Source: Pedobacter namyangjuensis (GTDB lineage: Bacteria; Bacteroidota; Bacteroidia; Sphingobacteriales; Sphingobacteriaceae). From it: DNA of 64,000 nt. Position 1 is the first letter of the stretch. The number at the start of each line of letters is the position of its first letter. The position numbers were made by a program, and so were the translations under genes. Below, one piece after another: positions 8,871 through 42,926 of the stretch. Where the stretch lies: assembly GCF_003313325.1 (NCBI RefSeq), contig NZ_QMHQ01000001.1, forward strand, positions 1,302,001 through 1,366,000. The letters are read 5' to 3'. The notes under the pieces were generated by a model. It saw only the letters and a program-made list of their open reading frames with translations. It ran no database searches and was not told the origin of the DNA.

Positions 8871-8934
8871 AGGATTTTGCAATAAGTCCACCTGACGCAA
8901 ACTGCGTAGCCCTCACCGAAGGTAAGCCCTTGTT
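8871..8934. repeat. array repeat 1 (3' half only)
   Basis: Only the right half of the palindromic repeat is present (GTCCACCTGACGCAAAC ... ACCGAAGGTAAGCCCTTGTT). The matching left stem is missing, so this is the decayed distal end of array 1. It shares the extra ACCGAAGGTAA segment with repeats 2, 6 and 7. Confidence 0.65.
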
Positions 8935-8946
8935 GTGCGTTCGGCA

Positions 8947-9981
8947 TTATTGTTTCATTAGTTCTTTAACTCCATTTTTTAAAATTTTAGCATTTATTCG
9001 TTTTATACAATAGTTTATTTCAGATTTAAATTCTTGTATATTATTTTCTATTAGGCTTTCTGCAATAGAAGTCCATAAATTATCTTTTAAACTGAAATCT
9101 GAAATTCCATACCTTACTTTTGCGGGAATTTTTTCAAGTAAATTCAACAAGTAGTTAAAGTTTTCTTTATTTTGATTAGTTAGGTTTAGTTCAAATGCTC
9201 TTGTAAGGATTATTTCTTTCAGATAAAGTTTCGGAACTTCAAATTTAGGGTCGTTTAAGGATGTGATTATTTCGTCAAAACTATTGATTTTGGCGATTGG
9301 TAAAAATGCTGGGATAAGATATTTACTTCCAAATTCTTTTCTATCAACAAGCTCAAATGTGCTTTCCAATGAATTTTGTGATGAATATGTTTCAATAAAA
9401 ATTTCTTTTATCCATTCGAGGTCATAAACATCTTTCCTTGCATTACATTTTTTTAGAATTTTTAGGAAATTATTTTTGTCTCCTAGTTTCCCGTAATAAT
9501 TTGCAATTAATCTATAACTTGAATATTGATAGGCTTTATCAGAAATTTTCGAAATTAATTCAAGAGAAATTGTTACATCATTTTGAAGCAACAGTTTTTG
9601 GATTATAAATTCAGTAAAATGGGATTGTAAAATTATATATTCTGCTTTTGATAGATAATTGATTAATTCATTGGTTGTCAATTCTAAATTTTCACAAGTT
9701 TGTATAAGTCTGCTTTCAATGGAAAGGTAGGAGCATCTATACCTTTGATTGTGAACAGATAGGCTTTCATCAGCATTTTTAAGAACATCTTCAATATTTT
9801 CGATAATCTTAGTCAATGATAATGCAGGTGCTTTGTCAACCCTTTGTTTGTCTAATGTTTCAGCTTTTCTTAAATAGTCATTCGTTTTAATTAATGAAAG
9901 GATTTCATCATTTGAAATTTCATCATTTTCAATCCAGTTGATTAAGTTGATACAAATGTCTATCTCGTTTTCTTGTTTCAT
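8947..9981 (-). CDS. hypothetical helical cassette protein
   Basis: A 344-residue soluble protein. It is leucine- and asparagine-rich, predicted mostly helical, with repeating LLxNxxxxxLELISKI-type segments that may be an armadillo/TPR-like solenoid. I do not recognise the family. Start chosen at the ATG of MKQENEI; a GTG at 10011 lies inside the inverted arm and is less likely. Left arm GTTGTGCG (8932) and right arm CTCACAAC (10007-10014) pair at seven of eight positions. Last unit of array 1 in transcription order. Confidence 0.6.
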   Translation of the reverse strand: MKQENEIDICINLINWIENDEISNDEILSLIKTNDYLRKAETLDKQRVDKAPALSLTKIIENIEDVLKNADESLSVHNQRYRCSYLSIESRLIQTCENLELTTNELINYLSKAEYIILQSHFTEFIIQKLLLQNDVTISLELISKISDKAYQYSSYRLIANYYGKLGDKNNFLKILKKCNARKDVYDLEWIKEIFIETYSSQNSLESTFELVDRKEFGSKYLIPAFLPIAKINSFDEIITSLNDPKFEVPKLYLKEIILTRAFELNLTNQNKENFNYLLNLLEKIPAKVRYGISDFSLKDNLWTSIAESLIENNIQEFKSEINYCIKRINAKILKNGVKELMKQ

Positions 9982-10011
9982 TTTATGCAGAATTTTGGTC
10001 TCATATCTCAC

Positions 10012-10180
10012 AACGTTTTGCAGATTTGCGATGTGCGGGAAATCGGAGCACGACCTGTCCCGACACTTCGGGACACGTTGATATTATTACTAAAGTTCAA
10101 TTGAAAAACTTTAGTCCAGATTTCGCAATCAGCCCGCCTGACGCAAACGGCGAAGCTCTCACCGAAGGTAAACACTTGTT
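10012..10180. repeat. array repeat 2 (169 bp, atypical)
   Basis: Longer than the standard 124 bp. The left half (GATTTGCGATGTGCGGG) and right half (CCCGCCTGACGCAAAC) come from different stem types and pair poorly; the right end has the extra ACCGAAGGTAA segment. An inner palindrome TGTCCCGACACTTCGGGACA (10056-10075) sits in the loop. It looks like a recombinant between two repeats. Confidence 0.7.
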
Positions 10181-10206
10181 AGCGGTAGTTTTTTATTTTT
10201 ACATTC

Positions 10207-10800
10207 TCAAAAGTCATCAGAAAACCATTCTTCCTCTAAATCATCCTCGTCAGATATTTCATTTTTATCATTTTTTAGATTTTCCTCGCTAACAAGTCCA
10301 CGAATAAATGTTTCAAAGTCTTTCGCTAAAAGAGTTTTTTTATAATCCCATTCTTGGTCAACGTGTACAACTTCTGGTTCTCCGTATTTACCACATTTTT
10401 CATAGTCTAACATTATCATATCGTGTCCTGCTGAAGGACAATCACAAATGAAAATGCCGGTATTCGGATATCCCCATTCATCAATCATAAATTGGCTTCC
10501 TAAACTACCGCATAATGAAGATGCTTTTTTTCTTCCAATTCCCATAATTCCTGTTATCGCACAATGGTCTTCCGCCCATGAAGTACTTTCTCTTGTAGGA
10601 AAACAGCAGTTTTTTGGCGTTCCGCCATTGTGAAGTTTCATAAGTTCTATGTACGAGGCTGGAAGTTTGTAATCCAATTCCTTTTCTACCGAAATAATAA
10701 GCTCGTCTGTCGGAAATTCTCCAACATATTCATTTATTGAATATTCGCTGTCATCCCAAAAGTCTGAAAAGTCAAAGTCGTGAAATATTTTTTGTTCCAT
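10207..10800 (-). CDS. SMI1/KNR4 (SUKH) family protein
   Basis: A 197-residue protein. SUKH features: VEKELDYKLPASYIELMKLHNGG near 38-60, then a Cys-rich strand (NCCFPTRES), GIGRKKAS, WGYPNTGIFICDCPSAGHDMIMLDY near 110-135, and PEVVHVDQEWDYKK. The tail is very acidic (DEDDLEEEW). SUKH proteins are common immunity proteins against nuclease and other polymorphic toxins; no cognate toxin is beside it. Arms GTTAGCGGTA (10178) and TACCGCTAAC (10829) are a perfect 10-bp inverted pair that delimits the cassette. Confidence 0.88.
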   Translation of the reverse strand: MEQKIFHDFDFSDFWDDSEYSINEYVGEFPTDELIISVEKELDYKLPASYIELMKLHNGGTPKNCCFPTRESTSWAEDHCAITGIMGIGRKKASSLCGSLGSQFMIDEWGYPNTGIFICDCPSAGHDMIMLDYEKCGKYGEPEVVHVDQEWDYKKTLLAKDFETFIRGLVSEENLKNDKNEISDEDDLEEEWFSDDF

Positions 10801-10835
10801 TTCTTTTAGTGAAGTTTCTTTTTAAAATTACCGCT

Positions 10836-10958
10836 AACGTTTTGGGGCTTTGCGATGGTGGGGCAATCGAAGTACAAAAGCTGATATTATTACTAAAGTT
10901 CAATTGAAAAACTACCGTTGAATTTTGCAATCAGCCCGCCTGACGCAAAACCCTTGTT
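10836..10958. repeat. array repeat 3 (chimeric stem)
   Basis: 123 bp. The left stem is type A (GGGGCTTTGCGATGGTGGGGC) but the right is type B (GCCCGCCTGACGCAAAACCC). The outer TTTTG/GGG...CCC pairs remain but the middle does not pair well. This suggests exchange between different repeats through the loop. Confidence 0.8.
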
Positions 10959-10973
10959 GTGCGATTGTGCTTT

Positions 10974-11576
10974 TTATTTACTTTCGTTTATCATTTTGTC
11001 AAGTAAATCGTCAAATTCGTTTCGTTCGTCTGATAAAAATACAGTGTCATCGTTTGGAAAATCTTCTGTCCAGATAATGCTGTCAGCTTTTACATTTGGA
11101 TTTTCAGATTGCGAAAAAAGCTCGACTATGAAGTTAATTTTATTTTCAGCTTCATATTCATAATCTTCTGGATTGAAAAGTTGTTTAACAACGACTTTAT
11201 AAAAACCATTTTCTATGTCAAATTTTAGGTCCTTATTGATTTCATCAGGTAGTTTTGTATCTTTAAATTGTAGAGACGTAGTTAAGTCAGTCCAATTTAT
11301 CAGATATAATTTTTGGTCTGTAACTTCTATGCTTTGTCCAAACTTTCTGAAATATGCTTTGTCTGTTTCGATATTAATTAAAAATTCAACAGTCCATTCA
11401 TTTTCCCAAGAAGTATCGAATACAATTAAGTTGTCTTTATTTGTTTCAAGTATAAAATTATTTAACTGCCTCCAAGTCCAGTTTGTTTGGTTGGCTAATG
11501 TTTCATTATACTTTTTTGTGTTTGCAATCGCAATTATTGAACCGTCTGTAATAATCTTTAATTTTTGTGTATTCAT
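10974..11576 (-). CDS. hypothetical cassette protein
   Basis: A 200-residue acidic soluble protein with several Trp residues (NQTNWTWRQLNNF, TSWENEW, LINWTDL) and an acidic C-terminus. No signal peptide or membrane segment. I do not recognise the family. Its size, acidity and company resemble immunity proteins, which is only an inference. Arms GTTGTGCGAT (10956) and ATCGCACAAC (11617) are perfect inverted copies. Confidence 0.7.
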   Translation of the reverse strand: MNTQKLKIITDGSIIAIANTKKYNETLANQTNWTWRQLNNFILETNKDNLIVFDTSWENEWTVEFLINIETDKAYFRKFGQSIEVTDQKLYLINWTDLTTSLQFKDTKLPDEINKDLKFDIENGFYKVVVKQLFNPEDYEYEAENKINFIVELFSQSENPNVKADSIIWTEDFPNDDTVFLSDERNEFDDLLDKMINESK

Positions 11577-11623
11577 TTTTGTCAGTTTCTTTGTTTTACG
11601 ATTGTTGTTTTAGCATATCGCAC

Positions 11624-11747
11624 AACGTTTTGGGGCTTTGCGATGGTGGGGCAATCGAAGCACAAAACTTCAATTTTGCACAAAGGCTGAACCGAAGAAC
11701 AACCGTTGAACTTTGCAGTTTCGCCCCACTATTGCAAAACCCTTGTT
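11624..11747. repeat. array repeat 4 (124 bp, type A)
   Basis: Runs from AAC to GTT. Left stem GGGGCTTTGCGATGGTGGGGC and right stem GCCCCACTATTGCAAAACCC pair with G-T and C-A mismatches. The loop holds CACAAAACTTCAATTTTGC and TTGAACTTTGCAG. Nearly identical to repeats 5, 9, 10, 11 and 14. Confidence 0.9.
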
Positions 11748-11758
11748 ACCTGCCGTTT

Positions 11759-12697
11759 TTATTTCCATCCATCTTTATTTGAATAAGTTTCATAATCACA
11801 ACCCGTTAAATAATCTAATTCTTTTTTAGTCTTAAGTTCGTAAGAAGTGTCAGAAATACTCAATAAAACTTCAAAGTCTTCATCTTTTGGCATTTTCGTT
11901 GGGTCTTTTAAAACTTCTTCATAAAATAGTTGTCCGTTAGCAACTGCTTTACATCTTGCGTAAAGAAAAAAGTCAACAGAAACATAATCATCTGTTTCAT
12001 TATAAGAACCGTCTCCAATATTTTTGGCGTGTTCTTTTGTGTCAAGGCAATAAAGTTTATATGTCAGGTTTTCTTGAAATTGTTTTATGTCAGAAACTTT
12101 GAGTTTTGATAAATGCTTAATTGCTGGTTCAACTATTTTGTCATCATCTACTTCGTTCCAATTAAATAAAGAAATAATGTCCCAAAATCGGTTGTCAACC
12201 ATCATTGCTTTAGGTTTCATAACTACATTTCGTCTTAACTCTTCGGCTCTTTTCTTTTGTTCTTCGTGTTCAGCTAATACAATCTCATTTTCATTTTCCC
12301 ATCTCCATTCCAAAAATGCCTGAAAACCAAAGTCTTTTTGTACAGCTCCACAAAGTTGAAATCCTCCGTCAGTTCCGTCCCCAATTTTTATTTTTAATTT
12401 TTCTTCTTTTTCAGTCAGTGGAATGTTTCCTAAATACTCAAAATTTTTCTCAATTATTTTTCCAGAATAGATATTAATACTTGGTGTGTTTTTGAAAAAA
12501 AATCTCTTTTCGATAAGAGTTTGTGTTAGTCGAATGTCATTGATTTCTGGTTTTTTGGTGTCAATGAAATTAGTTATTGAAATTAGAAAAAACTCATAGT
12601 CTGAAAAATCAAATTTTCCTTTCGTTTTAATTATACGAAAAGCTCCGAAAAAATTCCTGTCGAGCTTTGTTATGAAAATGTCTCCGTTGTTTATCAT
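11759..12697 (-). CDS. Imm26-like / DUF4240 fusion protein
   Basis: A 312-residue two-domain protein. Residues 1-105 start with NGDIFITKLDRNFFGAFRII, as in the Imm26 immunity family. After a basic/acidic helical linker (about 145-165), residues 170-300 match DUF4240: FWDIISLFNWN, a helix ending KLYCLDTKEHA, DDYVSVDFFLYARCKAVANG, FYEEVLKDPTKMPKDEDFEVLL and SYELKT. Both domains are typical of toxin-immunity neighbourhoods. Arms GTTACCTGCC (11745) and GGCAGGTAAC (12717) are a perfect pair. The Imm26 assignment is less certain than DUF4240. Confidence 0.8.
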   Translation of the reverse strand: MINNGDIFITKLDRNFFGAFRIIKTKGKFDFSDYEFFLISITNFIDTKKPEINDIRLTQTLIEKRFFFKNTPSINIYSGKIIEKNFEYLGNIPLTEKEEKLKIKIGDGTDGGFQLCGAVQKDFGFQAFLEWRWENENEIVLAEHEEQKKRAEELRRNVVMKPKAMMVDNRFWDIISLFNWNEVDDDKIVEPAIKHLSKLKVSDIKQFQENLTYKLYCLDTKEHAKNIGDGSYNETDDYVSVDFFLYARCKAVANGQLFYEEVLKDPTKMPKDEDFEVLLSISDTSYELKTKKELDYLTGCDYETYSNKDGWK

Positions 12698-12723
12698 AGT
12701 CGTGTCGTTCTAAAATGGCAGGT

Positions 12724-12847
12724 AACGTTTTGGGGCTTTGCGATGGTGGGGCAATCGAAGCATAAAACTTAAATTTTGCACAAAAGTTGAACCGAAGAAC
12801 AACTGTTGAAATTTGCAGTTTCGCCCCACTATTGCAAAACCCTTGTT
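12724..12847. repeat. array repeat 5 (124 bp, type A)
   Basis: Same stem and loop as repeat 4 with a few substitutions (CATAAAACTTAAATTTTGC). It is bounded on both sides by the same arm sequence (GGCAGGTAAC on the left and GTTACCTGCC on the right), because the two neighbouring cassettes have identical arms. Confidence 0.9.
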
Positions 12848-12868
12848 ACCTGCCGTTTTTTTAATTTG

Positions 12869-13474
12869 TTAATAACGCCATTTTTCAACAGTTTCTTCGC
12901 CTATAATTTCAGACACAATTTCCTCTGTCCATTCTTCAACGTCTTCTTGTTCAGCATCTCCAAATAGGTCAGATTGGGCAAATATTAAACAACCTTTTAA
13001 ATATTCGTCAACCGTGTTGAACATTTTTGTTATATATGGTTTATTATCGTGGTCGAAATAATAAATTTCTTTTGTTTCGCTGTGAAAGCAAAACATATTC
13101 CCATTTCCTAAATAATCGCTGAATGAAACTAAAAATGGTAAATGTATTTTGTCCTCTTCGGTAAAATCTGGTCCATATTGAGGTTGTTCAGCCCAAATAT
13201 TTTTTATCCAACCAATTTCCTTTAAGTCTTGTAATTGTTCTCCAATGTCTGCAAGTCCAAATTTTTGATAGAATATTTTTAAGCTGTTAGGCAAAGTAGT
13301 TCCCAAAAGATTTTCAAGTTCTTGTATTTCTTCAATTGAAATTGGTTCTTTTAATTCGTCATTCCAGTTTTCGGCGATAGATTGAATAATTAATTGTGTT
13401 TTACTTTCCCAATTGTCTTCTCCAATCTTGTCAAATGGAATTATAATGTCTTCTTTACTGTTAATTTCAAGCAT
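12869..13474 (-). CDS. SMI1/KNR4 (SUKH) family protein
   Basis: A 201-residue acidic protein with the SUKH core: ISIEEIQELENLLGTTLPNSLKIFYQKFG near 44-72, WIKNIWAEQPQYG, HLPFLVSFSDYLGNGNMFCFHSETKEIYYFDHDN near 115-150 and VDEYLKGCLIFA. The ATG at 13474 is preferred; an upstream GTG-type extension would run through the inverted arm. Probable immunity protein. First gene of array 1 in transcription order. Arms GTTACCTGCC (12845) and GGCAGGTAAC (13507) are perfect. Confidence 0.85.
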   Translation of the reverse strand: MLEINSKEDIIIPFDKIGEDNWESKTQLIIQSIAENWNDELKEPISIEEIQELENLLGTTLPNSLKIFYQKFGLADIGEQLQDLKEIGWIKNIWAEQPQYGPDFTEEDKIHLPFLVSFSDYLGNGNMFCFHSETKEIYYFDHDNKPYITKMFNTVDEYLKGCLIFAQSDLFGDAEQEDVEEWTEEIVSEIIGEETVEKWRY

Positions 13475-13513
13475 TGTGTTTGTTTTTAAGCGTTGTGTTT
13501 TAAAATGGCAGGT

Positions 13514-13527
13514 AACTTGCGTATTAG
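13514..13527. promoter_or_regulatory. array-1 leader junction (attI-like)
   Basis: AACTTGCGTATTAG at the promoter-proximal array end. It agrees with the array-2 end (42897-42910, AACTTGTGTATAAG) at 12 of 14 positions although the flanks are otherwise unrelated. Beyond AAC there is no array repeat, so this is where the first cassette meets non-cassette DNA. Confidence 0.6.
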
Positions 13528-13537
13528 AGCAACATAG

Positions 13538-13565
13538 CCGTATATACACGTTTTTACACGGATAA
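13538..13565. repeat. CCGTATATACACG element
   Basis: CCGTATATACACG, then TTTTTACACG, then GATAA. The reverse complement at 43566-43583 has the same outer blocks without the 10-bp middle (CCGTATATACACGGATAA). It lies 22 bp outside the array-1 leader. Role unknown. Confidence 0.55.
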
Positions 13566-13595
13566 AATCGCTTTGCTCTTTAAATATGGCTCAAT

Positions 13596-14193
13596 TTATT
13601 TCGTTATTTTAGCCTCTTTCAGTTTTTTCTCTACTAGCGTTATCGTCTCTTTGCCATCAGGCATTGCGCCAAAAAAGCCGGCCGATCGCCAAGTTCTGGC
13701 TTCCCAGATTAGAGATTTAGTATCGACATTATATAGGCTAAATAAGTAGGTAACACTTTTTAAATCGCTTCCTCTAGAACTTACATTTGTAATGGTAGTT
13801 TTAAAAATATAAGGCTTACCGCTTTGTTTGGCAATTTCCCAAACATTGGGTTCTGTTCCTCTATAGGCATTTAATTCAATCATCTTTTTTGTAGCATCGT
13901 CAGACATGGTTTTAATTTCTTCAGTTACCAAGCCACTTGTTTTCAAAGTATTATACAAAGGTTCTATAAAATCAGTTCTTTCCAAACCTAGCTTTGCGCC
14001 AACTATTACGTACGAGGTTTTTTCTAATTCTTCTTCGTGCCAGAAAAGGGCGTTTTTTATTGGAGAAGAAATTTCTGTGGAAATAGCTTAAGGCAAAAAC
14101 ATTAAATAAGGTTTGGTTGCTAATATCCCAACGTTTGTCGCTCGTTACCTGATTAAACAATTGCTCGCTTTTTTGTTCAAATAATTCTACCAT
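13596..14193 (-). pseudogene. hypothetical protein gene split by a one-base frameshift
   Basis: Two overlapping minus frames join into one protein if one A is removed from the A6 run (T6 at 14053-14058 on the plus strand). The 5' part starts MVELFEQKSEQLF at 14193 and continues to RNFFSNK. The 3' part then reads NALFWHEEELEKTSYVIVGA and runs through LYNTLKTSGLV, TTITNVSSRGSDLKS and SLIWEARTWRSAGFFG to 13596. The restored product is about 198 residues. The family is not recognised; it lies 12 bp after the DUF6882 gene. Either a sequencing error, a true pseudogene or A-run slippage. Confidence 0.65.
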
Positions 14194-31463: not shown

Positions 31464-31475
31464 AGCAACAGTTTT

Positions 31476-32975: not shown

Positions 32976-33099
32976 AACGTTTCGGGGCTTTGCGATGGTG
33001 GGGCAATCGAAGCACAAATCTTCAATTTTGCACAAAAGTTGAACCGAAGAACAACTGTTGAACTTTGCAGTTTCGCCCCACTATTGCAAAACCCTTGTT
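32976..33099. repeat. array repeat 9 (124 bp, type A)
   Basis: GGGGCTTTGCGATGGTGGGGC and GCCCCACTATTGCAAAACCC as stem, loop as in repeat 4 with ATCTTCAATTTTGC. Preceded by CCGCC-AAC and followed by GTTATAGCCA. Confidence 0.9.
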
Positions 33100-33112
33100 A
33101 TAGCCAGTGCTT

Positions 33113-33475: not shown

Positions 33476-33478
33476 TGT

Positions 33479-33823: not shown

Positions 33824-33851
33824 TGATGTAGTGTTTTTTAGTATTGGCTAT

Positions 33852-33975
33852 AACGTTTTGGGGCTTTGCGATGGTGGGGCAATAGAAGCACAAAACTTCA
33901 ATTTTGTACAAAAGTTAAATCGAAGAACTACCCTTGAACTTTGCAGTTTCGCCCCACTATTGCAAAACCCTTGTT
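33852..33975. repeat. array repeat 10 (124 bp, type A)
   Basis: Standard type A stem with loop AATAGAAGCACAAAACTTC and TTGAACTTTGCAG. Left arm TATAAC, right arm GTTAGCCGTA. Confidence 0.9.
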
Positions 33976-34001
33976 AGCCGTAGTATTTTTTCGGGTTCAT
34001 T

Positions 34002-34757: not shown

Positions 34758-34796
34758 TCTCTTTTATCAGTTGGTTGGTTTGTTAATATTACGGCT

Positions 34797-34920
34797 AACG
34801 TTTCGGGGCTTTGCGATGGTGGGGCAATCGAAGCACAAAACTTCAATTTTGCACAAAAGTTGAACCGAAGAACAATCGTTGAACTTTGCAGTTTCGCCCC
34901 ACTATTGCAAAACCCTTGTT
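34797..34920. repeat. array repeat 11 (124 bp, type A)
   Basis: Standard type A stem and loop, bounded by CGGCT-AAC and GTT-ACCTGC. Confidence 0.9.
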
Positions 34921-34952
34921 ACCTGCTGTTATATTTTTCATTTTGTGTTTCG

Positions 34953-35801: not shown

Positions 35802-35844
35802 TACTTGTCAGTGTTAGTTGTATCGTTCTGCAATAATAGCAGGT

Positions 35845-35968
35845 AACGGTTTTCGTATTGGCGATGGGCGGGATTTTTATCACTAAGGCTGATACGAAGA
35901 ACGAAAGTTGAATTTTGCACTTCCGTTGATACGAAGCCGTTCAGCCCGCCTATTGCCAATACGATGTT
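35845..35968. repeat. array repeat 12 (124 bp, type C)
   Basis: Stem CGTATTGGCGATGGGCGGG with CCCGCCTATTGCCAATACG. This sequence is quite different from type A but pairs just as well and keeps the same total length of 124 bp. Loop CACTAAGGCTGATACGAAG differs too. Confidence 0.88.
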
Positions 35969-35987
35969 GGCAGCCGTAATTTTTTGT

Positions 35988-37535
35988 CTATTCGTTTTCA
36001 CTTTGTCGTTTTAATGTTGGGTATAAAATTAGTCCAACTATAAATCCGCTCAAAAGTCCGCCTATATGAGCCGCATTGTCAATACCACCTGTCAGTCCCA
36101 TAAGCAAGTTAAAACCAACGAAAATAGCTGTGCTTATTAGAAACGATTTTGCAAAGTCAGGATGAAATACTTTTGTCAGAAGTAATGCAAGGAAAATTCC
36201 GTAAAGACCAAATATAGCTCCCGAAGCTCCAACACTAATTGTTGCGTCATACCACCAAAGGCTTGCTACACTTGCTAAAATTCCTGTCAGTAAATATGCG
36301 ATTAAATATTTTGTCCGTCCAAGTAGTGGTTCTAAGAAAATACCGACAAACAAAAGTCCATACATATTGGCTAATAAGTGCATTAGTCCACCGTGTAAAA
36401 ATGTGCTTGTAAGCAAACGCCACCATTGCCTTTCTGTTGTTAACGGTCTGAAATTAGCTCCCCAATTCAATAAGTCTTGTCCTTTGAAAGAGATAAAACC
36501 TAAGCCCATTACTGTCATTAAAAGAAAAATTCCGATGTTGATGTAAATAAGTATAGGTGTAATAAAGTAACCTTCTTTGGGTTTAAGGAAGTCAAGAAAT
36601 TCTTGCATTTCTTTTTGTGCTGCCTTGTCTGGTTTACCTGCTTTTATTCTTTCAAGTTGTTTTTGGTCAATTTTTGGAATGAGCAACATAATTAACCAAA
36701 CTAATGAACCAATAAGAGCCGAACCAAAAATCCATTGTAATTTTTTTCCGTTCCTTGCTTCAAATGGTTCATTAACTCCAACTAAAATTATTTTGCTAGG
36801 TTTGTAATTTGGATTTTGTTTGATTGCTTCAATATATCCGTCCTTGTCGTCAGAATTGCCAATTCTGTCTAAATACACAAACTCTGAAACATTTTTGTTG
36901 TCAAAGTCTTTTTGACTTTCATTCGCAAACTCCTGATATTTTTCTTCTTTCTCATTTTGTTCAAGTCGGTTACTGATTGACTTGTAATATTCTACACCTA
37001 ACCAACCTAATGGCTCTTTTGTTAAAGTATCATTTTTGCTTTCAAAAATTGGCATTGCAACATAAATGTGCATATTAAAACGGTCATTGTGTTTTCCACT
37101 TACGTCAAATGCTGAATGAACCCCAATAGCTCGCTTGTCAATGTAGTATGTTTTTAAAGAGTAGTATTTTGTCGATGCTGAGTTGTTGATTTCTTTAATG
37201 GAATTTAGTTCGGTAAGTTTTCCTGTCGCTGTTACGATATACTCTTGTGCAATTATCAACGGAATTGTCAGAGCAATCCAAGCGATAAAACTGTAAAAGT
37301 CCCGCCAATTTCCACGTTTTGCTTCAAGGTTTAGAATTTTGAATTTAGGTCGTAAGAAAAACCAAGCTGCTAAACCTGTCAGCACGATAGGGATACCAAA
37401 ATTTGTGATAATCTCTTTTAGCGAAAAGAGGTTCAGTTCAATAAAAAGTGTCCAATGGATTAATGTGTAACCAACAGTCAGTCCGACAAGTGTTAGGATG
37501 AATGGTTTGAAAATGATGTTCAGTTTATCTCTCAT
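35988..37535 (-). CDS. rhomboid family intramembrane serine protease
   Basis: A 515-residue membrane protein. A long N-terminal half (about 300 residues, with extracytoplasmic DNRFNMHIYVAMPIF segment and two to three membrane spans) precedes the rhomboid domain. Rhomboid motifs: TFLHGGLMHLLANMYGLL, ISVGASGAIFGLYG (catalytic Ser in GASGA) and DNAAHIGGLLSGF (catalytic His in AAHIGG). It cleaves membrane proteins within the bilayer. This is the largest single-gene cassette. Arms GTTGGCAGCC (35966) and GGCTGCCAAC (37560) are perfect. Confidence 0.92.
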   Translation of the reverse strand: MRDKLNIIFKPFILTLVGLTVGYTLIHWTLFIELNLFSLKEIITNFGIPIVLTGLAAWFFLRPKFKILNLEAKRGNWRDFYSFIAWIALTIPLIIAQEYIVTATGKLTELNSIKEINNSASTKYYSLKTYYIDKRAIGVHSAFDVSGKHNDRFNMHIYVAMPIFESKNDTLTKEPLGWLGVEYYKSISNRLEQNEKEEKYQEFANESQKDFDNKNVSEFVYLDRIGNSDDKDGYIEAIKQNPNYKPSKIILVGVNEPFEARNGKKLQWIFGSALIGSLVWLIMLLIPKIDQKQLERIKAGKPDKAAQKEMQEFLDFLKPKEGYFITPILIYINIGIFLLMTVMGLGFISFKGQDLLNWGANFRPLTTERQWWRLLTSTFLHGGLMHLLANMYGLLFVGIFLEPLLGRTKYLIAYLLTGILASVASLWWYDATISVGASGAIFGLYGIFLALLLTKVFHPDFAKSFLISTAIFVGFNLLMGLTGGIDNAAHIGGLLSGFIVGLILYPTLKRQSENE

Positions 37536-37566
37536 TGTTTACGCTGTGTCCGTTATTATGGCTGCC

Positions 37567-37690
37567 AACGGTTTGCAGCTTGGCGAAGTGGCGGAAATCT
37601 AAGCACAAATGTTCAGTTTTGCACAAAAGTTCAATCGAAAAGCTGCTGTTGAATTTAGCACTGAACCCGCCATTTTGCCAAACTGCTGTT
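37567..37690. repeat. array repeat 13 (124 bp, type D)
   Basis: Stem GCAGCTTGGCGAAGTGGCGG with CCGCCATTTTGCCAAACTGC, pairing in all but three positions (C-A, G-T, G-T). Another stem variant of the same length. Confidence 0.88.
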
Positions 37691-37701
37691 ATGCACCGTT
37701 T

Positions 37702-37977
37702 TTATTCTAATGGGTTCCAATTTTCGTCTCGTTGCTCGTCCTTTGTTGGTTGTCTCACATTTCTAATCATCTCTCGTTCGCAAGCACCAAATTCAATAAA
37801 ATTCCTTTGTCCTTGTCTTAGTGAAACTCGGTTTGCACCACCTTCATAATTAGGGTCGTTAAGTTGAATTGGGTCGTCTTCCCAAAAACAAACTTGACAA
37901 ATGTCATATGAGCCATTAGGTTGTTCTCTAAATGTCTTGTAGCCACAACAAGGGCAAGCAAACTTTTCTGTTACCAT
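37702..37977 (-). CDS. CPCC-family cysteine-rich protein
   Basis: A 91-residue protein with two Cys pairs, FACPCCGYKTF and YDICQVCFWEDDPIQL, then the CPCC-family signature GGANRVSLRQGQRNFIEFGACE. The family is usually found beside polymorphic toxin or immunity genes and may bind zinc. The ATG at 37977 overlaps the end of the upstream gene by 7 bp; a TTG at 37989 is less likely. Shares its cassette with that gene. Confidence 0.88.
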   Translation of the reverse strand: MVTEKFACPCCGYKTFREQPNGSYDICQVCFWEDDPIQLNDPNYEGGANRVSLRQGQRNFIEFGACEREMIRNVRQPTKDEQRDENWNPLE

Positions 37978-38540
37978 ATTTTCCACCAAGGTTTTTTGTT
38001 CTCAAATGAATAGTAACTCCCACCTGTCAAAATTTTGGCGTCAAGGTTATATTTAAACTCAACCCATTCGTCTGCATCGTGCATTGGGTTATACGCAAGT
38101 CCTGACACCAAATTATTTTCAACTTTAATTTCAGCCAATCCGTCCCACGAAATTCTTTCCGTGTTCCAACGTGTTCCGTCAGGCTCAATAATAGTCAAGT
38201 CTGTTTGGTCTTGCAATAAAAGTCTGTCTTTATTTGCTTTAAAAATATTTGAAAAACCAACTCCAAAAACTTGAATTGGTTTTGTGTCGTTTGGGTTCAT
38301 TATATAACAAGTTCCACAGGCTATAACCAACAAGTTTTGGGTTTTCTCAAACTCTAATACTTGTTTTAAGTCTGTCCAACCAGGTTGAAAGTTGGCAATC
38401 CATTCAGTTCCGTCTGTCTTGTAAAAGCGAACAGGAAATCCCTCGGAATAAAAAGGCTCTCCGTTGTCTGTCACGGGAATGTACATTGGTCCGTATGTCG
38501 GCAATGAACTTAATATTTCGTATCGTTTTTCTGTCGTCAC
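37971..38540 (-). CDS. hypothetical cassette protein
   Basis: A 189-residue protein: LSSLPTYGPMYIPVTDNGEPFYSEGFPVRFYKTDGTEWIANFQPGWTDLKQVLEF, LLVIACGTCYIMNPNDTKPI and a mostly beta C-terminus. I do not recognise the family, though WIANFQPG... occurs in proteins near toxin loci. Arms GTTATGCACC (37688) and GGTGCATAAC (38569) enclose this gene and the CPCC gene as one unit. Confidence 0.68.
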   Translation of the reverse strand: MTTEKRYEILSSLPTYGPMYIPVTDNGEPFYSEGFPVRFYKTDGTEWIANFQPGWTDLKQVLEFEKTQNLLVIACGTCYIMNPNDTKPIQVFGVGFSNIFKANKDRLLLQDQTDLTIIEPDGTRWNTERISWDGLAEIKVENNLVSGLAYNPMHDADEWVEFKYNLDAKILTGGSYYSFENKKPWWKIW

Positions 38541-38575
38541 TTTGTCTTGTGTAGGGTCGTTCTAAAATGGTGCAT

Positions 38576-38699
38576 AACGTTTCGGGGCTTTGCGATGGTT
38601 GAGCAATCGAAGCACAAATCTTCAATTTTGCACAAAAATTGAACCGAAGAACTACCCTTGGACTTTGCAGTTTCGCCCCACTATTGCAAAACCCTTGTT
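38576..38699. repeat. array repeat 14 (124 bp, type A)
   Basis: Type A stem with one substitution (GATGGTTGAGC instead of GATGGTGGGGC), so the top of the stem has lost pairs. Loop as in repeat 9. Confidence 0.88.
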
Positions 38700-38714
38700 G
38701 TACGCAGTTTTTTT

Positions 38715-39221
38715 TCACATTAAGTCTATTATTCTACCATTTTCAAGTTTAAACGGTCCTTGCAAATTGTTATTCTCTTCAATAGCTTCGTCCATTGCTG
38801 TAAAAAAATTGTCCCAATGTTCTTTTAATAAGATCTCATTTTTTGTTTCACAATAATCGCCTTCATCAAAAATTTCAAGATTTGAAAAATAATTTTCAAT
38901 AACATTTAATAAATCTATAATTTTAATATGAGTTTCAATATTAGAAAATTGAGTTTTACAATATTCTTGAATGTACAAATCTTTATCAAACTCAAAAATT
39001 AATGGTTCGGAATTTTCGTGTGGTTGTACTTGAATGCCTTTTGTTGTGCCTACATAATCCCAATCTTCTTCGTTTTTTACCCTTTCTAATTTTTTAAATT
39101 CATTTTGGAATTCAAAAAAAGTCCAATTGTGAAACTCAGAATATTCAACCACTCTTTTTATAAGCAAATTGTAATGTTCCTCATCTTTAAGTTTTCCTTC
39201 AAAGTGAATTGTTATTCCCAT
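38715..39221 (-). CDS. hypothetical cassette protein
   Basis: A 168-residue acidic protein: MGITIHFEGKLKDEEHYNLLIKRVVEYSEFHNWTFFEF then a helical region and IEENNNLQGPFKLENGRIIDLM. MGITIHFEG openings occur in a small conserved family of unknown function. Arms GTTGTACGCA (38697) and TGCGGACAAC (39244) match at nine of ten positions. Confidence 0.68.
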   Translation of the reverse strand: MGITIHFEGKLKDEEHYNLLIKRVVEYSEFHNWTFFEFQNEFKKLERVKNEEDWDYVGTTKGIQVQPHENSEPLIFEFDKDLYIQEYCKTQFSNIETHIKIIDLLNVIENYFSNLEIFDEGDYCETKNEILLKEHWDNFFTAMDEAIEENNNLQGPFKLENGRIIDLM

Positions 39222-39250
39222 ATTTGGCGTGATTTTTTAAAATTGCGGAC

Positions 39251-39374
39251 AACGTTTTTCGGCTTGGCAATGTGGCGGATTTTTAGCACAAAAGTTCAAT
39301 AGAATTACTGCCGTTGAACCTTGCACAAATGTTTCATAGAAGCACTTCAGTCGCCATATTGCCAAACCGATGTT
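39251..39374. repeat. array repeat 15 (124 bp, type E)
   Basis: Stem TCGGCTTGGCAATGTGGCGG with TCGCCATATTGCCAAACCGA, pairing with one G-T and one end mismatch. Loop CACAAAAGTTCAATAG and TTGAACCTTGCAC. Confidence 0.88.
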
Positions 39375-39388
39375 AGCGGTTCGGGCTT

Positions 39389-40150
39389 TCATTGTCCGTA
39401 TATTTTTGTTTTTAAGTTAAAACTATATTCTGTCAAAATACCTTCAAGTTTTTGTCTGTTGTTACTACTTTCAGGTGCTTTGTTTTCAAGTCGTCTTGTA
39501 AAGTCGTTAATTGCTTTAAGTATTTTTTGCTTGTCGCTTTCTAAAACTTCTTCTTTTTCTGTTTGTTGTTTTTTTCTTTCCAAACTGTCTTTTGCAATCT
39601 TTAAAACTTCATTGTCGTTGTCGAACTGATTAAAAAGGTTGTCAATTAAAAGCTCTGGAATGATTTGTTTTGTTGCAAGCTCAGCCGATAAAAGTCCACG
39701 AATACAATAAAACGCAGTCTTGTAAGTAAATTTTTTTCCTGTTTCCATTAAGTTGATGTTTCCTTTCGCAAGCGAAACGTAATGATGAAACAATGCTTTA
39801 AAATCAAAATTCTTAATTATGTCTTGCTGAAAGGTTGTCCATTCGGGAAGTTCGTTGAAATAAACAATATTTGCTCTTATCCATTCAAAAACTGTAGGGT
39901 TACTTTTCACTAAAAGTCCAAACATTTTGTCAATGTCGTAGGAAACAAAGTCGAAATCACCGTCCATAACTTCAATAATGTCACGGTGTTTTTTGAAGTC
40001 GAAATATTGTTTCTTTGATTGAAGATGAAAACCACGAACATCATAATCACTATCAGGACTTGCTATGCCCCAAAGTCGGCTTCCACTCTCAATGTAGAAA
40101 AGTGGTTTTTCGTCTACGTTGTTAAATAAATTGTCTATTTGTTCTCTCAT
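39389..40150 (-). CDS. nucleotidyltransferase (YcgL/Pol-beta type)
   Basis: A 253-residue protein: FYIESGSRLWGIASPDSDYDVRG (about 18-40) is the Gly-Ser plus Asp-x-Asp active-site block of the YcgL-like nucleotidyltransferase family. The rest (FDFVSYDIDKMFGLLVKSNPTVFEWI, YCIRGLLSAELATKQIIP) matches that group. It probably transfers a nucleotide to a protein or RNA, as in MNT-type systems. No HEPN partner is adjacent. Arms GTTAGCGGTT and ACCGCTAAC match over nine bases. Confidence 0.9.
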   Translation of the reverse strand: MREQIDNLFNNVDEKPLFYIESGSRLWGIASPDSDYDVRGFHLQSKKQYFDFKKHRDIIEVMDGDFDFVSYDIDKMFGLLVKSNPTVFEWIRANIVYFNELPEWTTFQQDIIKNFDFKALFHHYVSLAKGNINLMETGKKFTYKTAFYCIRGLLSAELATKQIIPELLIDNLFNQFDNDNEVLKIAKDSLERKKQQTEKEEVLESDKQKILKAINDFTRRLENKAPESSNNRQKLEGILTEYSFNLKTKIYGQ

Positions 40151-40188
40151 TCTGTCTGTTGATGATTGGTTGTTATAGCCTGACCGCT

Positions 40189-40312
40189 AACGTTTTTGGG
40201 CTTTGCGTTCGGGCGGGTTTCGGAGCACAAAGTTTCAAATTATTACTAAAGTTCAATAGAGGCACTAAACTACAAGTTTGCACGTCAGTCCGCCTGACGC
40301 AAAACCCGTGTT
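40189..40312. repeat. array repeat 16 (124 bp, type B)
   Basis: Stem GGGCTTTGCGTTCGGGCGGG with GTCCGCCTGACGCAAAACCC, pairing with a bulge in TTCGGG. Loop with TATTACTAAAGTTCAATAG. Confidence 0.88.
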
Positions 40313-40323
40313 AGTGGTTGCCA

Positions 40324-40998
40324 TTATTTTTGTCTGCATTGGTTTACGATTGCTGTTGTCAATGAGTCAAATTTTTGTTGGCTCTTAAAATCATTTCTGT
40401 CAACGGTGTCATTGTTGTAAATATAAAAGTCCGAAAAGGTTATTTCTTTTTCTACGTAATTTGTTGAATTGGCTTCTATCGTCTGTCCAATTGTGCCCGA
40501 ACCACCAACTAAAACACACGGTCGTTTTTGAATTCTGTCTTTAAAGTTAAGTATTTGCGATATTTTAGTTCGGTTGCCTAATTCGTCAACCAAATAATAG
40601 TCGTAATTAACGTGTCTGTCGAAGTCTTCGTTTAGGATCAATATTCCATTGTCGGGGAAAGTCAATGTGTTTATGCCATCCGTTTTGTCATAATTGCGCC
40701 CACAATTTTTTTCATATACAACTCGTAAATTTCCTTCAAAGTTTTTTGGAATTAAAATTGTCTTTGGTGTCGAATAATTGTGAGCATACAAGAATAATAA
40801 AGTTGATGGAACGTATAAAATTAATGGGGTTAATGTCGAAAGCAATTTTATGTTAATATTCTGCTTGGAAAGAAAAATAAATATTGTTCCAGCTAAGAAT
40901 GTCGGTATTCCAAAAGCTAAAAGATAGAAGCTTACAACACAAGCAATAAAGCTAATTGCAACTAAAGTCAGTCCGATATAAAATGCTGTTTGTTTCAA
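40324..40998 (-). CDS. membrane protein (DUF6843-like) cassette product
   Basis: A 224-residue protein with three N-terminal hydrophobic segments (about 5-27, 30-45, 52-72). A soluble domain with ILIPKNFEGNLRVVYEKNCGRNYDKTDGINTLTFPDNGILILNEDFD follows, resembling DUF6843, then RPCVLVGGSGTIGQ. Function unknown. Arms GTTAGTGGTT and GCCACTAAC share eight matching bases next to AAC but differ beyond. Confidence 0.68.
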   Translation of the reverse strand: MKQTAFYIGLTLVAISFIACVVSFYLLAFGIPTFLAGTIFIFLSKQNINIKLLSTLTPLILYVPSTLLFLYAHNYSTPKTILIPKNFEGNLRVVYEKNCGRNYDKTDGINTLTFPDNGILILNEDFDRHVNYDYYLVDELGNRTKISQILNFKDRIQKRPCVLVGGSGTIGQTIEANSTNYVEKEITFSDFYIYNNDTVDRNDFKSQQKFDSLTTAIVNQCRQK

Positions 40999-41039
40999 CT
41001 TGTGTCTATTCGTTGGTATGTCGTTTTATGGTTGCCACT

Positions 41040-41163
41040 AACGGTTCGGGTATTGCCGCGGTGGGGGAATTTGGAAACCGTCAGCCGAATTTAGTACTAG
41101 AGTTTCATAGTAGCACAACTGTTGAAGTCTGCTCGTCAGCCCCCATTGCAGCAATACCTTGTT
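41040..41163. repeat. array repeat 17 (124 bp, type F)
   Basis: Stem GGTATTGCCGCGGTGGGGG with CCCCCATTGCAGCAATACC, pairing except for G-T wobbles. The sequence has little in common with types A-E, yet the length is again 124 bp. Confidence 0.88.
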
Positions 41164-41174
41164 AGCCGTAGTTT

Positions 41175-42030
41175 TTATTCGGTTCGTATTTTTCTTATGT
41201 ACTCCAATGAATTTTTGGCTTCTTCCGAGTTGATTTCTAAGTTTAATCCTTTAGCTAATTTCTCTTGTTGTTTCGTAAATATTTTAGCCATAAGTTCTAA
41301 AGAGTTCCAATTGTTTTCGATGTTAGAATCGGAATAAGTTTTTAAAATATTTTCATAAAGAAATTCGGGTATAAACTTTTCAGCAAACTTTCCAGATTTA
41401 CCAGCAGAAACTTTGAAATTATTTTCATTCCCGATATTCCATTCGATAATTTGCCAAAACATTGGTCTTACTACATTTTCCAACATATCTTTTGCATAAA
41501 TTAATTCTTCTCGTTTCAAGCCTTTTGCAACATTTGTTATACACCACCAAAATTCATTGCATACTTCAGAAAACTCTCGTTGAGTTGGTTTTGCAATATG
41601 ATAATGTTTATCAGATGGTTGGGGAATATTTTTAAACAGGTTGTCTTTGTCTAGCAAAACAATGGTTAAACTGTCAATTTTAAAGTTTGTTTGAATCTTT
41701 TCATACGGAAACAAGGTTAGGTCAATTCTGTTTTGGTCTTCAAAAATCATTAGAAATCCAAAAGAAAAATGTTCATCATTTACTTCTTTTTCCCAATTCC
41801 ATTTCATCAGGAAGTTGTTGTAAAATAGGCTTTCCGAATATATTAATCCAGTTTCTGTTAGTTAAAAAATAGTCGAAATCTTTAACGATAAAAACAATGT
41901 CAAAGTCTTGATATTTGTCCGGAGTTACGTTAGGATTTGCTCTTGAACCGTTAAGAAGAACAGCTCTGATTCTTTCGTCAGTTTTTGCAAAATTTAGGGT
42001 TTTATCTTGGATGTCGTTTTGATTAAGCAT
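41175..42030 (-). pseudogene. frameshifted aminoglycoside 6-adenylyltransferase (AadE/ANT(6)-like)
   Basis: Two overlapping minus frames. 42030-41776 carries AVLLNGSRANPN...KYQDFDIVFIVKDF and ...FGKPILQQLPDEMEL. 41807-41175 carries FLMIFEDQNRIDLTLFP, EFSEVCNEFWWCITNVAKGLKREELIYAKDML and KSGKFAEKFIPEFLY. Removing one A from the A5 run (T5 at 41787-41791) joins them to about 285 residues, the size of streptomycin 6-adenylyltransferases. All key motifs (GSR, DFDIVF, RIDLTL) are present across the join. As sequenced it is inactive; a sequencing error is possible. Arms GTTAGCCGTA and TACGGCTAAC are perfect. Confidence 0.85.
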
Positions 42031-42051
42031 TTTTGGTCAAAAATTACGGCT

Positions 42052-42175
42052 AACGTTTTGGGGCTTTGCGTTCGGGCGGGTTTCGGAGCACAAAAGCCGA
42101 TATTATTACTAATGTTTAATTGAAAAACTGCTGTTGAATTTTGCACTTCAGCCCGCCTGACGCAAAGCCCTTGTT
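42052..42175. repeat. array repeat 18 (124 bp, type B)
   Basis: Stem GGGCTTTGCGTTCGGGCGGG with GCCCGCCTGACGCAAAGCCC, the best-paired of the type B copies (GGGCTTTGCG against CGCAAAGCCC is perfect over ten bases). Nearest repeat to the array-2 leader. Confidence 0.9.
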
Positions 42176-42188
42176 GGTAGCAGTGCTT

Positions 42189-42884
42189 TTATGTCGCCCA
42201 ACTAAATTTATCATTTCTTGTCAAATATGCCTTGTCTATGTCAAGGTCATTGCTAAAAGTGTCAACGATAATGGCTAAAATTTCTTGTCTGTTGATTGTT
42301 CCTTTTCTTCGTCTAACAGCAACGTAATTTTCTGTGACGAGTTTTTCTGTCAACTGTCGTACTGTATTAATCTCAAACTCTTTTGCAAAGAATTTATATG
42401 CTGTCCAACCAATAGTAATAAAGAACAATAAACCTGTTATAGCAAATTGCCACTTAAAGAAGAAGGTAATAAGCGAAGCCACAATGCCAATAAATATTGT
42501 CCAACCAAACCAAGATTTAATGTCCAAGATTTTTAGGGTTATATTTAATTCGTCCTGAAATTCTTTGATTTTTTGTATACGATTATCTTTTGGAAAGATG
42601 TCTTGCAATTTGGTGTCTAAGGTTATTGTTTTTGCGTCTATAAGTTGGGTAGATGCAATTGCATTGCGAACTTTATAAAATGCTTGTTGGGTTGTGCAGT
42701 CGTCTGAATTGTCTCCTTGAAGTTTGGTTGTAAAAATGTCGCATAGGTCGCCAAATGTTTGGACATTGTAGAAAGCATCTTTCTCAAACTTTAAGCCAAA
42801 TGACTTTTCAAGTTTTAGAACTACGTCAAAGATGACTTCGTCTTCGTAGTTGTCAAGTTTAGTTATGTCGTTAAGTACTGTCAT
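42189..42884 (-). CDS. hypothetical cassette protein, ACP-like N-terminus and two membrane segments
   Basis: A 231-residue protein. Residues 12-55 (EDEVIFDVVLKLEKSFGLKFEKDAFYNVQTFGDLCDIFTTKL) resemble the helical acyl-carrier-like DUF1493 fold but lack a phosphopantetheine Ser. Residues about 125-165 contain two membrane segments. The C-terminal part (RQEILAIIVDTFSNDLDIDKAYLTRNDKFSW) is a second ACP-like helix set. First gene of array 2. Arms GTTGGTAGCA (42173) and TGCTACCAAC (42890) are perfect. Confidence 0.7.
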   Translation of the reverse strand: MTVLNDITKLDNYEDEVIFDVVLKLEKSFGLKFEKDAFYNVQTFGDLCDIFTTKLQGDNSDDCTTQQAFYKVRNAIASTQLIDAKTITLDTKLQDIFPKDNRIQKIKEFQDELNITLKILDIKSWFGWTIFIGIVASLITFFFKWQFAITGLLFFITIGWTAYKFFAKEFEINTVRQLTEKLVTENYVAVRRRKGTINRQEILAIIVDTFSNDLDIDKAYLTRNDKFSWAT

Positions 42885-42896
42885 TGCATTGCTACC

Positions 42897-42926
42897 AACT
42901 TGTGTATAAGTCTGACATTTTCAGAC
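42897..42926. promoter_or_regulatory. array-2 leader junction (attI-like) with hairpin
   Basis: AACTTGTGTATAAG (42897-42910) follows the right arm of the first cassette. It is immediately followed by GTCTGA-CATTT-TCAGAC (42910-42926), a 6-bp inverted pair. The first 14 bases match the array-1 end at 12 positions. Such a site would be the docking point for new cassettes. Confidence 0.6.

What the first reader, a model, noticed from the sequence alone, without database searches (positions are those of the whole stretch)
8871..42910. Two minus-strand gene-cassette arrays with palindromic separators
Seventeen units, each holding one or two unrelated genes in the same direction, are separated by a repeat that looks like a folded recombination site. 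This is integron-like organisation, but the separators do not fit the attC core consensus (GTTRRRY / RYYYAAC) and no integron integrase gene is in the window. I am not aware of a named system with these features. If confirmed it would be a distinct cassette-capture system in Bacteroidota.
Basis: partly seen in the sequence, partly recalled or inferred. Interest (0 to 1): 0.95.

Follow-up and report, generated by a model that had tools for sequence, protein, structure and literature searches.

The report
Overlooked second integron lineage of Bacteroidota
This bacterial chromosome carries two arrays of 17 gene units built like integron cassettes, headed in one case by the deleted remnant of an integrase from a family found next to such arrays in many Bacteroidota; that integrase likely captures and shuffles the units, as a little-studied counterpart of the integrons that spread antibiotic resistance elsewhere.

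Summary
In detail: 17 minus-strand units in two arrays, with 15 complete AAC...GTT repeats (12 of exactly 124 bp) and two truncated ones. In most units the start arm (GTT+7) pairs with the same unit's end arm (7+AAC), the signature of a circular cassette. Window 42993-43124(-) is an internally deleted integrase gene directly upstream of the array leader. In 80 named loci, nearly all Bacteroidota, the integrase lies upstream of the same repeats: 124 of 126 plus-strand repeat matches are downstream and co-oriented. A structured attI lies about 100 bp after the stop. Close relatives share integrase and attI but diverge at or near its GTT, and one window cassette recurs in another species behind a different neighbour. 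The integrase has an extra N-terminal domain, lacks the insert that defines IntI, and falls outside the IntI clade. The repeats nevertheless share the attC plan with canonical integrons. So it works like an integron but fails the IntI test: a new, widespread variant. The window's own arrays look orphaned (no intact integrase found in a 97%-complete genome). Recombination itself is inferred, not shown.

The parts
42993..43124 (-). integrase pseudogene: about 34 N-terminal codons joined to the last 9 codons (43 aa + stop); about 920 bp of the gene missing relative to G037
   Evidence: (62% id over integrase residues 3-36)
42897..42992 (-). attI of array A2; insertion GTT at 42897-42899
   Evidence: same layout as the attI of 72 loci
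42052..42896 (-). cassette 1: ORF 42189-42884 (no Pfam) + repeat 42052-42175
41040..42051 (-). cassette 2: adenylyltransferase-like gene split into ORFs 41776-42030 and 41175-41807 + repeat 41040-41163
   Evidence: PF04439 in the second ORF; the first was not scanned
40189..41039 (-). cassette 3: ORF 40324-40998 (DUF6843) + repeat 40189-40312
39251..40188 (-). cassette 4: ORF 39389-40150 (RlaP nucleotidyltransferase) + repeat 39251-39374
38576..39250 (-). cassette 5: ORF 38715-39221 + repeat 38576-38699
37567..38575 (-). cassette 6: ORFs 37971-38540 and 37702-37989 (CPCC) + repeat 37567-37690
35845..37566 (-). cassette 7: ORF 35988-37535 (rhomboid) + repeat 35845-35968
34797..35844 (-). cassette 8: ORF 34953-35801 (GIY-YIG) + repeat 34797-34920
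33852..34796 (-). cassette 9: ORF 34002-34757 (DUF1963) + repeat 33852-33975; homologous cassette in G044 behind a different repeat
32976..33851 (-). cassette 10: ORFs 33479-33823 and 33113-33475 + repeat 32976-33099
32046..32975 (-). unit 11: ORF 32186-33025 (DUF4184) + 142-bp repeat 32046-32187; arms do not match
31396..32045 (-). unit 12: ORF 31476-32003 + truncated repeat about 31396-31475; arms 6 of 9
13514..13600 (-). leader of array A1 (other leader type, no integrase); insertion GTT 13514-13516
12724..13513 (-). A1 cassette 1: SUKH-family ORF (listed 12869-13549) + repeat 12724-12847
11624..12723 (-). A1 cassette 2: ORF 11759-12697 (DUF4240) + repeat 11624-11747
10836..11623 (-). A1 cassette 3: ORF 10974-11576 + repeat 10836-10958
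10012..10835 (-). A1 cassette 4: ORF 10207-10800 (SUKH) + 169-bp repeat 10012-10180
8871..10011 (-). A1 unit 5: ORF 8947-10011 + truncated repeat about 8871-8940; arms 5 of 9

Best explanation
The 17 units are gene cassettes of an integron-like system of Bacteroidota, likely moved by a dedicated tyrosine recombinase that is not a canonical IntI and whose gene here survives only as a deleted remnant at the head of array A2. Proposed working: the integrase (N-terminal domain + SAM-like domain + catalytic domain) recombines the AAC/GTT ends of a cassette; the cassette leaves as a circle in which its GTT+7 start arm abuts its own 7+AAC end arm, so that the repeat can fold into a hairpin with a 10-bp R stem, a 9-bp L stem and inner stems; the circle re-enters at the GTT of attI, about 100 bp downstream of the integrase stop, beside a long inverted repeat, and would be transcribed from a promoter-like TAnnTTTG near the integrase stop. 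SHOWN by calls: arrays, arm pairing, integrase-attI-array order and orientation, divergence of relatives at or near the attI GTT, recurrence of one cassette, the broken integrase here. INFERRED: that this integrase does the recombination, that the substrate is a folded single strand, which strand is used, and that the promoter works. The window's arrays are probably orphaned now.
For: Circle-arm signature in the window and independently in 79 adjacent units of the 80 integrase loci: mean 5.65 of 7, 59 of 79 at 6 or more, against 2.88 +/- 0.14 shuffled (maximum 3.35); arms of the same repeat 3.15. Integrase-array linkage: 124 of 126 plus-strand repeat matches lie downstream of the integrase on its strand; by script 121 in 310 kb downstream, 2 in 681 kb upstream. 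attI: 72 of 80 loci have AGTT[AG] within 125 nt of the stop; its inverted repeat covaries (score 0.458 against 0.172 +/- 0.015 shuffled, 0.11-0.15 slid). Relatives with 80% or more identity over integrase + attI: 94% identity in the 20 nt before, 44% after the GTT in 11 pairs; in two Chryseobacterium plasmids, 95.8-96.7% identical there, homology stops at the GTT. Window cassette 9 recurs in G044 at 88.7% identity, starting exactly at the GTT, behind a different repeat. Syntenic integrase intact in G037, with one stop in G030, deleted in the window, with no cassettes found in common.
Against: No excision, circle or insertion was observed; everything is comparative. In the own genome I found no intact integrase yet 34 repeats, so current mobility here is unsupported. 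9 of 45 loci with 1.2 kb or more downstream have no repeat match. Unit 11 fails the arm test and the two array-end units match only partly. In 2 of the 13 close pairs homology runs 14 and 53 nt past the GTT, in 4 it runs 8-10 nt, one of the exact cases is due to a contig end, and the pairs share members. Most array-bearing relatives lack a strong integrase match (26 of 118 with integrase at E<=1e-30, 73 of 118 with repeats, own genome included). The repeats also occur in some genomes that carry canonical IntI, for example G123, G131 and G141. The TAnnTTTG motif is absent from the window's own A2 leader.
Confidence: 0.85

Rival explanations
1. The arrays are ordinary CALINs, clusters of canonical attC sites mobilised by a standard IntI encoded elsewhere or lost.
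For: The attC plan (AAC/GTT, L stem, complementary arms, in some loci 2- and 6-nt spacers) is shared with canonical IntI loci of the phylum; 105 of 395 sampled phylum genomes carry an IntI above cut-off, and some of these genomes also hold the repeats, for example G123, G131, G141.
Against: By the printed rows only one of those genomes (G152) is in the window's class. The repeat model finds nothing at E<=0.05 beside canonical IntI genes in 37 sources from 33 genomes, one match at E 0.089 (30 of the sources reach only about 1.5 kb from the gene, so power is limited). The same repeats sit downstream of the divergent integrase in 40 of 80 loci.
Confidence: 0.07
2. The housekeeping XerC/XerD pair recombines the repeats, and the neighbouring integrase is incidental.
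For: Own genome has XerC- and XerD-like genes (298 and 305 aa open frames) and no intact array integrase was found; the array integrase is itself Xer-like.
Against: Fixed integrase-attI-array order with about 100-bp spacing in many genera; relatives share integrase and attI but lose homology at or near the GTT.
Confidence: 0.06
3. Passive repeats: a REP-like palindrome spread between genes, and arrays vary only by homologous recombination.
For: Repeats are similar (up to 89% to the reference copy in the window) and common in genomes without a strong integrase match.
Against: Unit-specific arm pairing lies outside the repeat and follows the unit, not the repeat; breakpoints lie at or near the GTT; attI and integrase sit at the array head.
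Confidence: 0.03

Closest known systems
Canonical integrons (IntI / attI / attC), including sedentary chromosomal integrons and CALINs
   Same: Co-oriented one- or two-gene cassettes, each with a folding 3' site; AAC/GTT ends; cassette-specific complementary arms; attI beside the integrase gene with the insertion point in GTT; spacers of 2 and 6 nt as at some canonical loci of the same phylum; shared SPxD C-terminal motif.
   Different: Integrase lacks the IntI insert (IntI4 has 60 residues where this family's profile has 18) and has an extra N-terminal domain; it lies outside the IntI clade; the gene points the same way as the cassettes; start box GTTR(N6)A with A at +8 (149 of 151) and 7-nt arms instead of GTTRRRY (9 of 151); attI holds a covarying inverted repeat.
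XerA / Xer tyrosine recombinases (NCBIfam NF040815, PDB 5hxy, 4a8e)
   Same: Closest solved relatives by sequence profile and among the top structural matches, together with IntI4 (2a3v).
   Different: Extra N-terminal domain; linked to cassette arrays and an attI, whereas Xer proteins act on dif (recalled).
Group IIC-attC introns in integrons (PMC7923331, passages read)
   Same: In plasmid NZ_CP041688.1 a group II intron lies antisense inside the array, with its 5' end apparently at the AAC end of a repeat, the position and orientation described for attC.
   Different: One case only; exact intron ends not determined; not a member of the system itself.

Membership tests
canonical integron | tyrosine recombinase with the IntI-specific additional domain near patch III | tested here: not met
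   IntI4 has 60 residues (between 180 and 241) where the family profile has 18 (between 258 and 277); the insert seen in 3 IntI is absent in the 5 array integrases aligned with them and in the 19; TIGR02249 206-225 bits in 4 proteins, cut-off 265
canonical integron | integrase falls in the IntI clade | tested here: not met
   56-row quick tree: 14 IntI one clade (SH-aLRT 99); 26 array integrases plus one relative in another (96) (26 of 78 and 14 of 29 available rows used; long branches present)
canonical integron | attI adjacent to the integrase, insertion at GTT | tested here: met
   72 of 80 loci; divergence at or near the GTT in close pairs
canonical integron | cassettes = ORF + imperfect inverted-repeat site with complementary R boxes belonging to the cassette circle | tested here: met
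canonical integron | R box consensus GTTRRRY / RYYYAAC | tested here: not met
   9 of 151 starts; but cassette starts at canonical loci of the phylum also depart from it, so weak as a criterion
canonical integron | integrase gene divergent from the cassettes (usual; recalled) | tested here: not met
   124 of 126 plus-strand repeat matches co-oriented and downstream
canonical integron | integrase-dependent recombination of folded attC | not testable with these tools
   needs an experiment
CALIN (attC cluster without integrase) | two or more attC sites and no integrase gene | tested here: met
   in form: the window's arrays have only an integrase pseudogene, though the sites belong to the divergent lineage
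XerA/Xer recombinase | NCBIfam NF040815 equivalog score | tested here: inconclusive
   217.5-223.8 bits against cut-off 220 in 4 proteins (2 above, 2 below)
HARP domain (PF07443) | profile and fold match of the integrase N-terminal domain | tested here: inconclusive
   HARP matched by 2 of 19 members, best E 0.0016, while DUF5710 is matched by 4 of 19, best E 0.00061; Foldseek top hit 4o66 HARP but E 0.5; model pLDDT 69

The most novel reading that the evidence does not exclude
Bacteroidota have a separate class of integron: an integrase that never acquired the IntI insert and uses a HARP-like N-terminal domain instead to bind folded or single-stranded cassette sites, with its own end code (GTT+7 and a fixed mismatch at position 8) and a structured attI. 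It spans much of the phylum and has been missed because integron searches require the IntI domain.
Probability: 0.5. Interest if true: 0.92.

Novelty: new variant of a known kind. Interest (0 to 1): 0.82.

Why it matters
Few integrons are on record for Bacteroidetes: IntegronFinder 2.0 reports that only In0 had been detected there before and names one complete integron, in Salinibacter, besides Chlorobi and Ignavibacteriae (PMC9024848, passages). My own sample finds canonical IntI in 105 of 395 genomes of the phylum but, by the printed rows, in only one of the window's class. Repeats of the lineage described here occur in 73 of 118 relatives (34 of 48 genera) and 89 of 198 genomes across the phylum, own genome included. 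If the integrase is the recombinase, cassette capture is common in a dominant class of soil, water and animal bacteria, the IntI insert is not required for cassette recombination, and there is a ready comparison for how folded-site recombination evolved. Two Chryseobacterium plasmids carry integrase + attI, one of them with five repeats (none matched in the other), so it is also on plasmids. Assemblies break at it: 39 of 80 contigs end within 1.5 kb downstream of the integrase, 3 of 80 within 1.5 kb upstream, which may help to explain why it was overlooked.

Tried and rejected
Tried without result: Rfam found no family at gathering score in window 8000-44000; PADLOC found no defence family in 10 of the window's cassette proteins; phage records gave only distant integrases, best listed 39.8% identity; a search for the leader motif in the window gave only array A2.

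Rejected: that arm length beyond GTT is unique to this system. Canonical IntI loci of the phylum show arms of 7-12 nt, so I use only the sharp limit at 7 (40 pairs with a run of at least 7, 4 with at least 8, in six loci) and the conserved A(+8) (149 of 151) and C(-8) (121 of 154). Rejected: calling the repeats unlike attC. Not settled: whether loss or absence of the IntI insert is ancestral. The tree is a quick one with long branches and a weak backbone.

Fold search of the full integrase says little about its N-terminal domain (notes that the rows mainly span residues 72-339). The domain predicted alone gave no match at E<=0.001.

Full report
1. The observation. On the minus strand two arrays of co-oriented genes are separated by a repeat that begins AAC and ends GTT. 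A2 (leader about 42900, tail about 31400) has 12 units and A1 (leader about 13514, tail about 8871) has 5. Fifteen repeats are complete, 12 of them exactly 124 bp; each array closes with a truncated one. The genome (4.33 Mb, 29 contigs, 97% complete) holds 34 matches at E<=0.001 to a covariance model of the repeat, on contigs C1, C12, C23, C25, C26 and C27. The genus is probably Pedobacter: a same-genus genome (G033) has an integrase match on a contig of the same length, 167,646 bases, as one titled Pedobacter sp. UBA4863; this is inference.

2. Units are circles. In most units the seven bases after GTT at the start pair with the seven bases before AAC at the end of the same unit. Over nine positions, 109 of 135 match in the 15 units with complete repeats, against 58.3 +/- 6.0 (maximum 91) when ends are shuffled among units; the two arms of one repeat match only 52 of 135. 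One unit, ending at repeat 32046-32187, does not fit (2 of 9); the two array-end units with truncated repeats fit partly (6 and 5 of 9). In the 80 integrase loci described below, 59 of 79 adjacent units match at 6 or 7 of 7. Over 151 starts the ends read GTTRNNNNNNA in 144, with A at +8 in 149; over 154 ends the base at -8 is C in 121, so a conserved A/C mismatch bounds the arms. Inside the repeat a 9-bp helix and an inner helix are supported by paired changes: 9 of 14 pairs show both sides changed in at least one sequence. Single-strand folds beat shuffles on both strands to a similar degree, z -1.0 to -2.9 in six folds of three repeats, so the active strand cannot be told.

3. The recombinase. 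Within the window, 42993-43124(-) encodes 43 residues: the first 34 or so of an integrase joined to its last 9. Aligned to the syntenic locus of G037, the window lacks about 920 bp inside the gene, while the attI and upstream genes (117-aa protein 69%, a 114-aa ORF 68%, 620- and 440-aa proteins 62-75%) are conserved; G030 shares the same upstream genes. The G037 gene is intact (352 aa), G030 has one stop, the window a deletion. I found no intact copy elsewhere in the own genome: its tyrosine recombinases are a XerC- and a XerD-like protein and three more distant ones.

4. The integrase family. Members have an N-terminal domain of about 70 residues that reaches no Pfam cut-off in the four members, then PF13495 and PF00589. 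NCBIfam scores four members at 217-224 bits on NF040815 (cut-off 220) and 206-225 on TIGR02249 (cut-off 265). Against IntI4 (2a3v) the family profile has 18 residues where IntI4 has 60: the IntI insert is missing. In a 56-row quick tree, 14 IntI form one clade (99) and 26 array integrases plus one relative another (96); the backbone is weak and some branches are long. The N-terminal domain, predicted as two strands, helix, two strands, helix, has the SMARCAL1 HARP domain as its best but non-significant fold match (E 0.5); as marginal Pfam matches, DUF5710 is found in 4 and HARP in 2 of 19 members. A role in binding folded or single-stranded sites is a guess.

5. Linkage. Of 129 repeat matches, 126 are on the integrase strand and 124 of these lie downstream of it. 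By script, 121 fall in 310 kb downstream and 2 in 681 kb upstream; 36 of 45 loci with at least 1.2 kb downstream have a repeat, 9 do not. Contigs stop within 1.5 kb downstream in 39 of 80 and upstream in 3 of 80. Two contigs (L157, L170) stop exactly at the attI GTT.

6. attI. In 72 of 80 loci an AGTT[AG] lies within 125 nt of the stop, 95-107 nt from it in 60 of the 72, mostly preceded by TATAWAC. Upstream are two boxes that are largely reverse complements of each other and vary between species. On 36 sequences the pairing shows covariation 0.458 against 0.172 +/- 0.015 shuffled and 0.11-0.15 slid. A TAnnTTTG motif, the Bacteroidota -7 element (recalled), lies near the stop in 47 of 72, with 3.0 expected; it is absent from the window's A2 leader, which otherwise has the attI layout. 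A1 has another leader type, shared by eye with the array on C26. The array on C12 has a full attI without any integrase frame.

7. Insertion point and exchange. Among 84 loci, 13 pairs have at least 80% identity over integrase + attI. Homology ends within 1 nt of the GTT in 7 (one of these because a contig ends there), at 8-10 nt in 4, and at 14 and 53 nt in 2; pairs share members. In 11 pairs the 20 nt before are 94% and the 20 nt after 44% identical. Two Chryseobacterium plasmids, NZ_CP041688.1 and NZ_CP094530.1, share backbone genes and a 95.8-96.7% identical integrase + attI and then carry different genes; the first has five repeat matches, the second none. G036 and G037 do the same at 94-95%. 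Window cassette 9 (DUF1963) recurs in G044 at 88.7% nucleotide identity: homology starts at the GTT behind a repeat of a different subtype and runs to AACAAGG, where the other assembly has a gap. At the orthologous Pedobacter locus no cassette shared by the window, G037 and G030 was found at E<=1e-12; the G030 array is cut by its contig end.

8. Distribution and relation to canonical integrons. The repeat occurs in 73 of 118 relatives and 89 of 198 phylum genomes, own genome included. Canonical IntI above cut-off occurs in 105 of 395 phylum genomes, by the printed rows only one of them (G152) in the window's class. The repeat model finds no match at E<=0.05 beside canonical IntI in 37 sources from 33 genomes, and one at 0.089; 30 of these sources reach only about 1.5 kb from the gene. 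Some genomes hold both a canonical IntI and the repeats at other places (for example G123, G131, G141). Cassettes at some canonical loci show AAC-AA-L'' ... L'-6 nt-GTT (L252) and arms of 7-12 nt, while spacers differ at others (L251, L253) (by eye). So the site plan is shared while the integrase, the end code and the gene orientation differ. In NZ_CP041688.1 a group II intron (Rfam) lies antisense in the array with its 5' end apparently at the AAC end of a repeat, as reported for attC (PMC7923331, passages); its exact ends were not determined.

9. Cargo. Pfam gives unrelated accessory genes: an adenylyltransferase-like gene split in two, DUF6843, RlaP, rhomboid, GIY-YIG, DUF1963, DUF4184, two SUKH proteins, DUF4240 and a CPCC protein; 8 of the 19 cassette ORFs scanned have no family. 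PADLOC is negative for the 10 scanned.

10. Literature. Ten searches of the held library listed no paper whose title or abstract start describes this lineage. I read passages of PMC9024848, PMC9668308, PMC8618304, PMC2426708, PMC7923331 and PMC12901181. Preprints and most subscription papers are not held, so an existing description is possible.

11. Verdict. An integron-like cassette system with its own integrase lineage, very likely a new variant of the integron kind; in this window it is a decayed, orphaned instance. The linkage, attI, breakpoints and cassette signature are shown by sequence. The reaction, its strand and the domain roles are inferred.

Noticed in passing
L208:18700-20590 (plasmid NZ_CP041688.1): A group II intron lies antisense inside the cassette array with its 5' end apparently at the AAC end of a repeat, like group IIC-attC introns; an IS110-family element also lies in this array.
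   Followed up: partly
L039:11840-11920 (own genome C12) and L041:8080-8150 (C26): Other arrays of the same genome start at an attI or leader without any integrase; the C26 array and window array A1 share, by eye, a second leader type (GTATAnACGG...AGTT).
   Followed up: partly
L042:2725-2849, L039:13334-13457, L198 about 2434-2566: A second repeat subtype (AACAACAGGTTTAAGTTAAG...CTCAACTTAAACCTGCAAAACGTT) is interspersed with the main one, also in another species.
   Followed up: no
window 41175-42030: Adenylyltransferase-like cassette gene is split into two overlapping reading frames; described only.
   Followed up: no
L157 and L170 contig ends: Two metagenome contigs end exactly at the attI GTT, as expected if different cassettes follow attI within one population.
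   Followed up: no
plasmid hits H13-H37: A recombinase about 52% identical over residues 116-352 of the query is common on Acinetobacter plasmids; its context was not examined.
   Followed up: no
window 43127-43477: A 117-aa protein of no Pfam family directly precedes the integrase remnant and is conserved upstream of the integrase in G037 and G030.
   Followed up: partly
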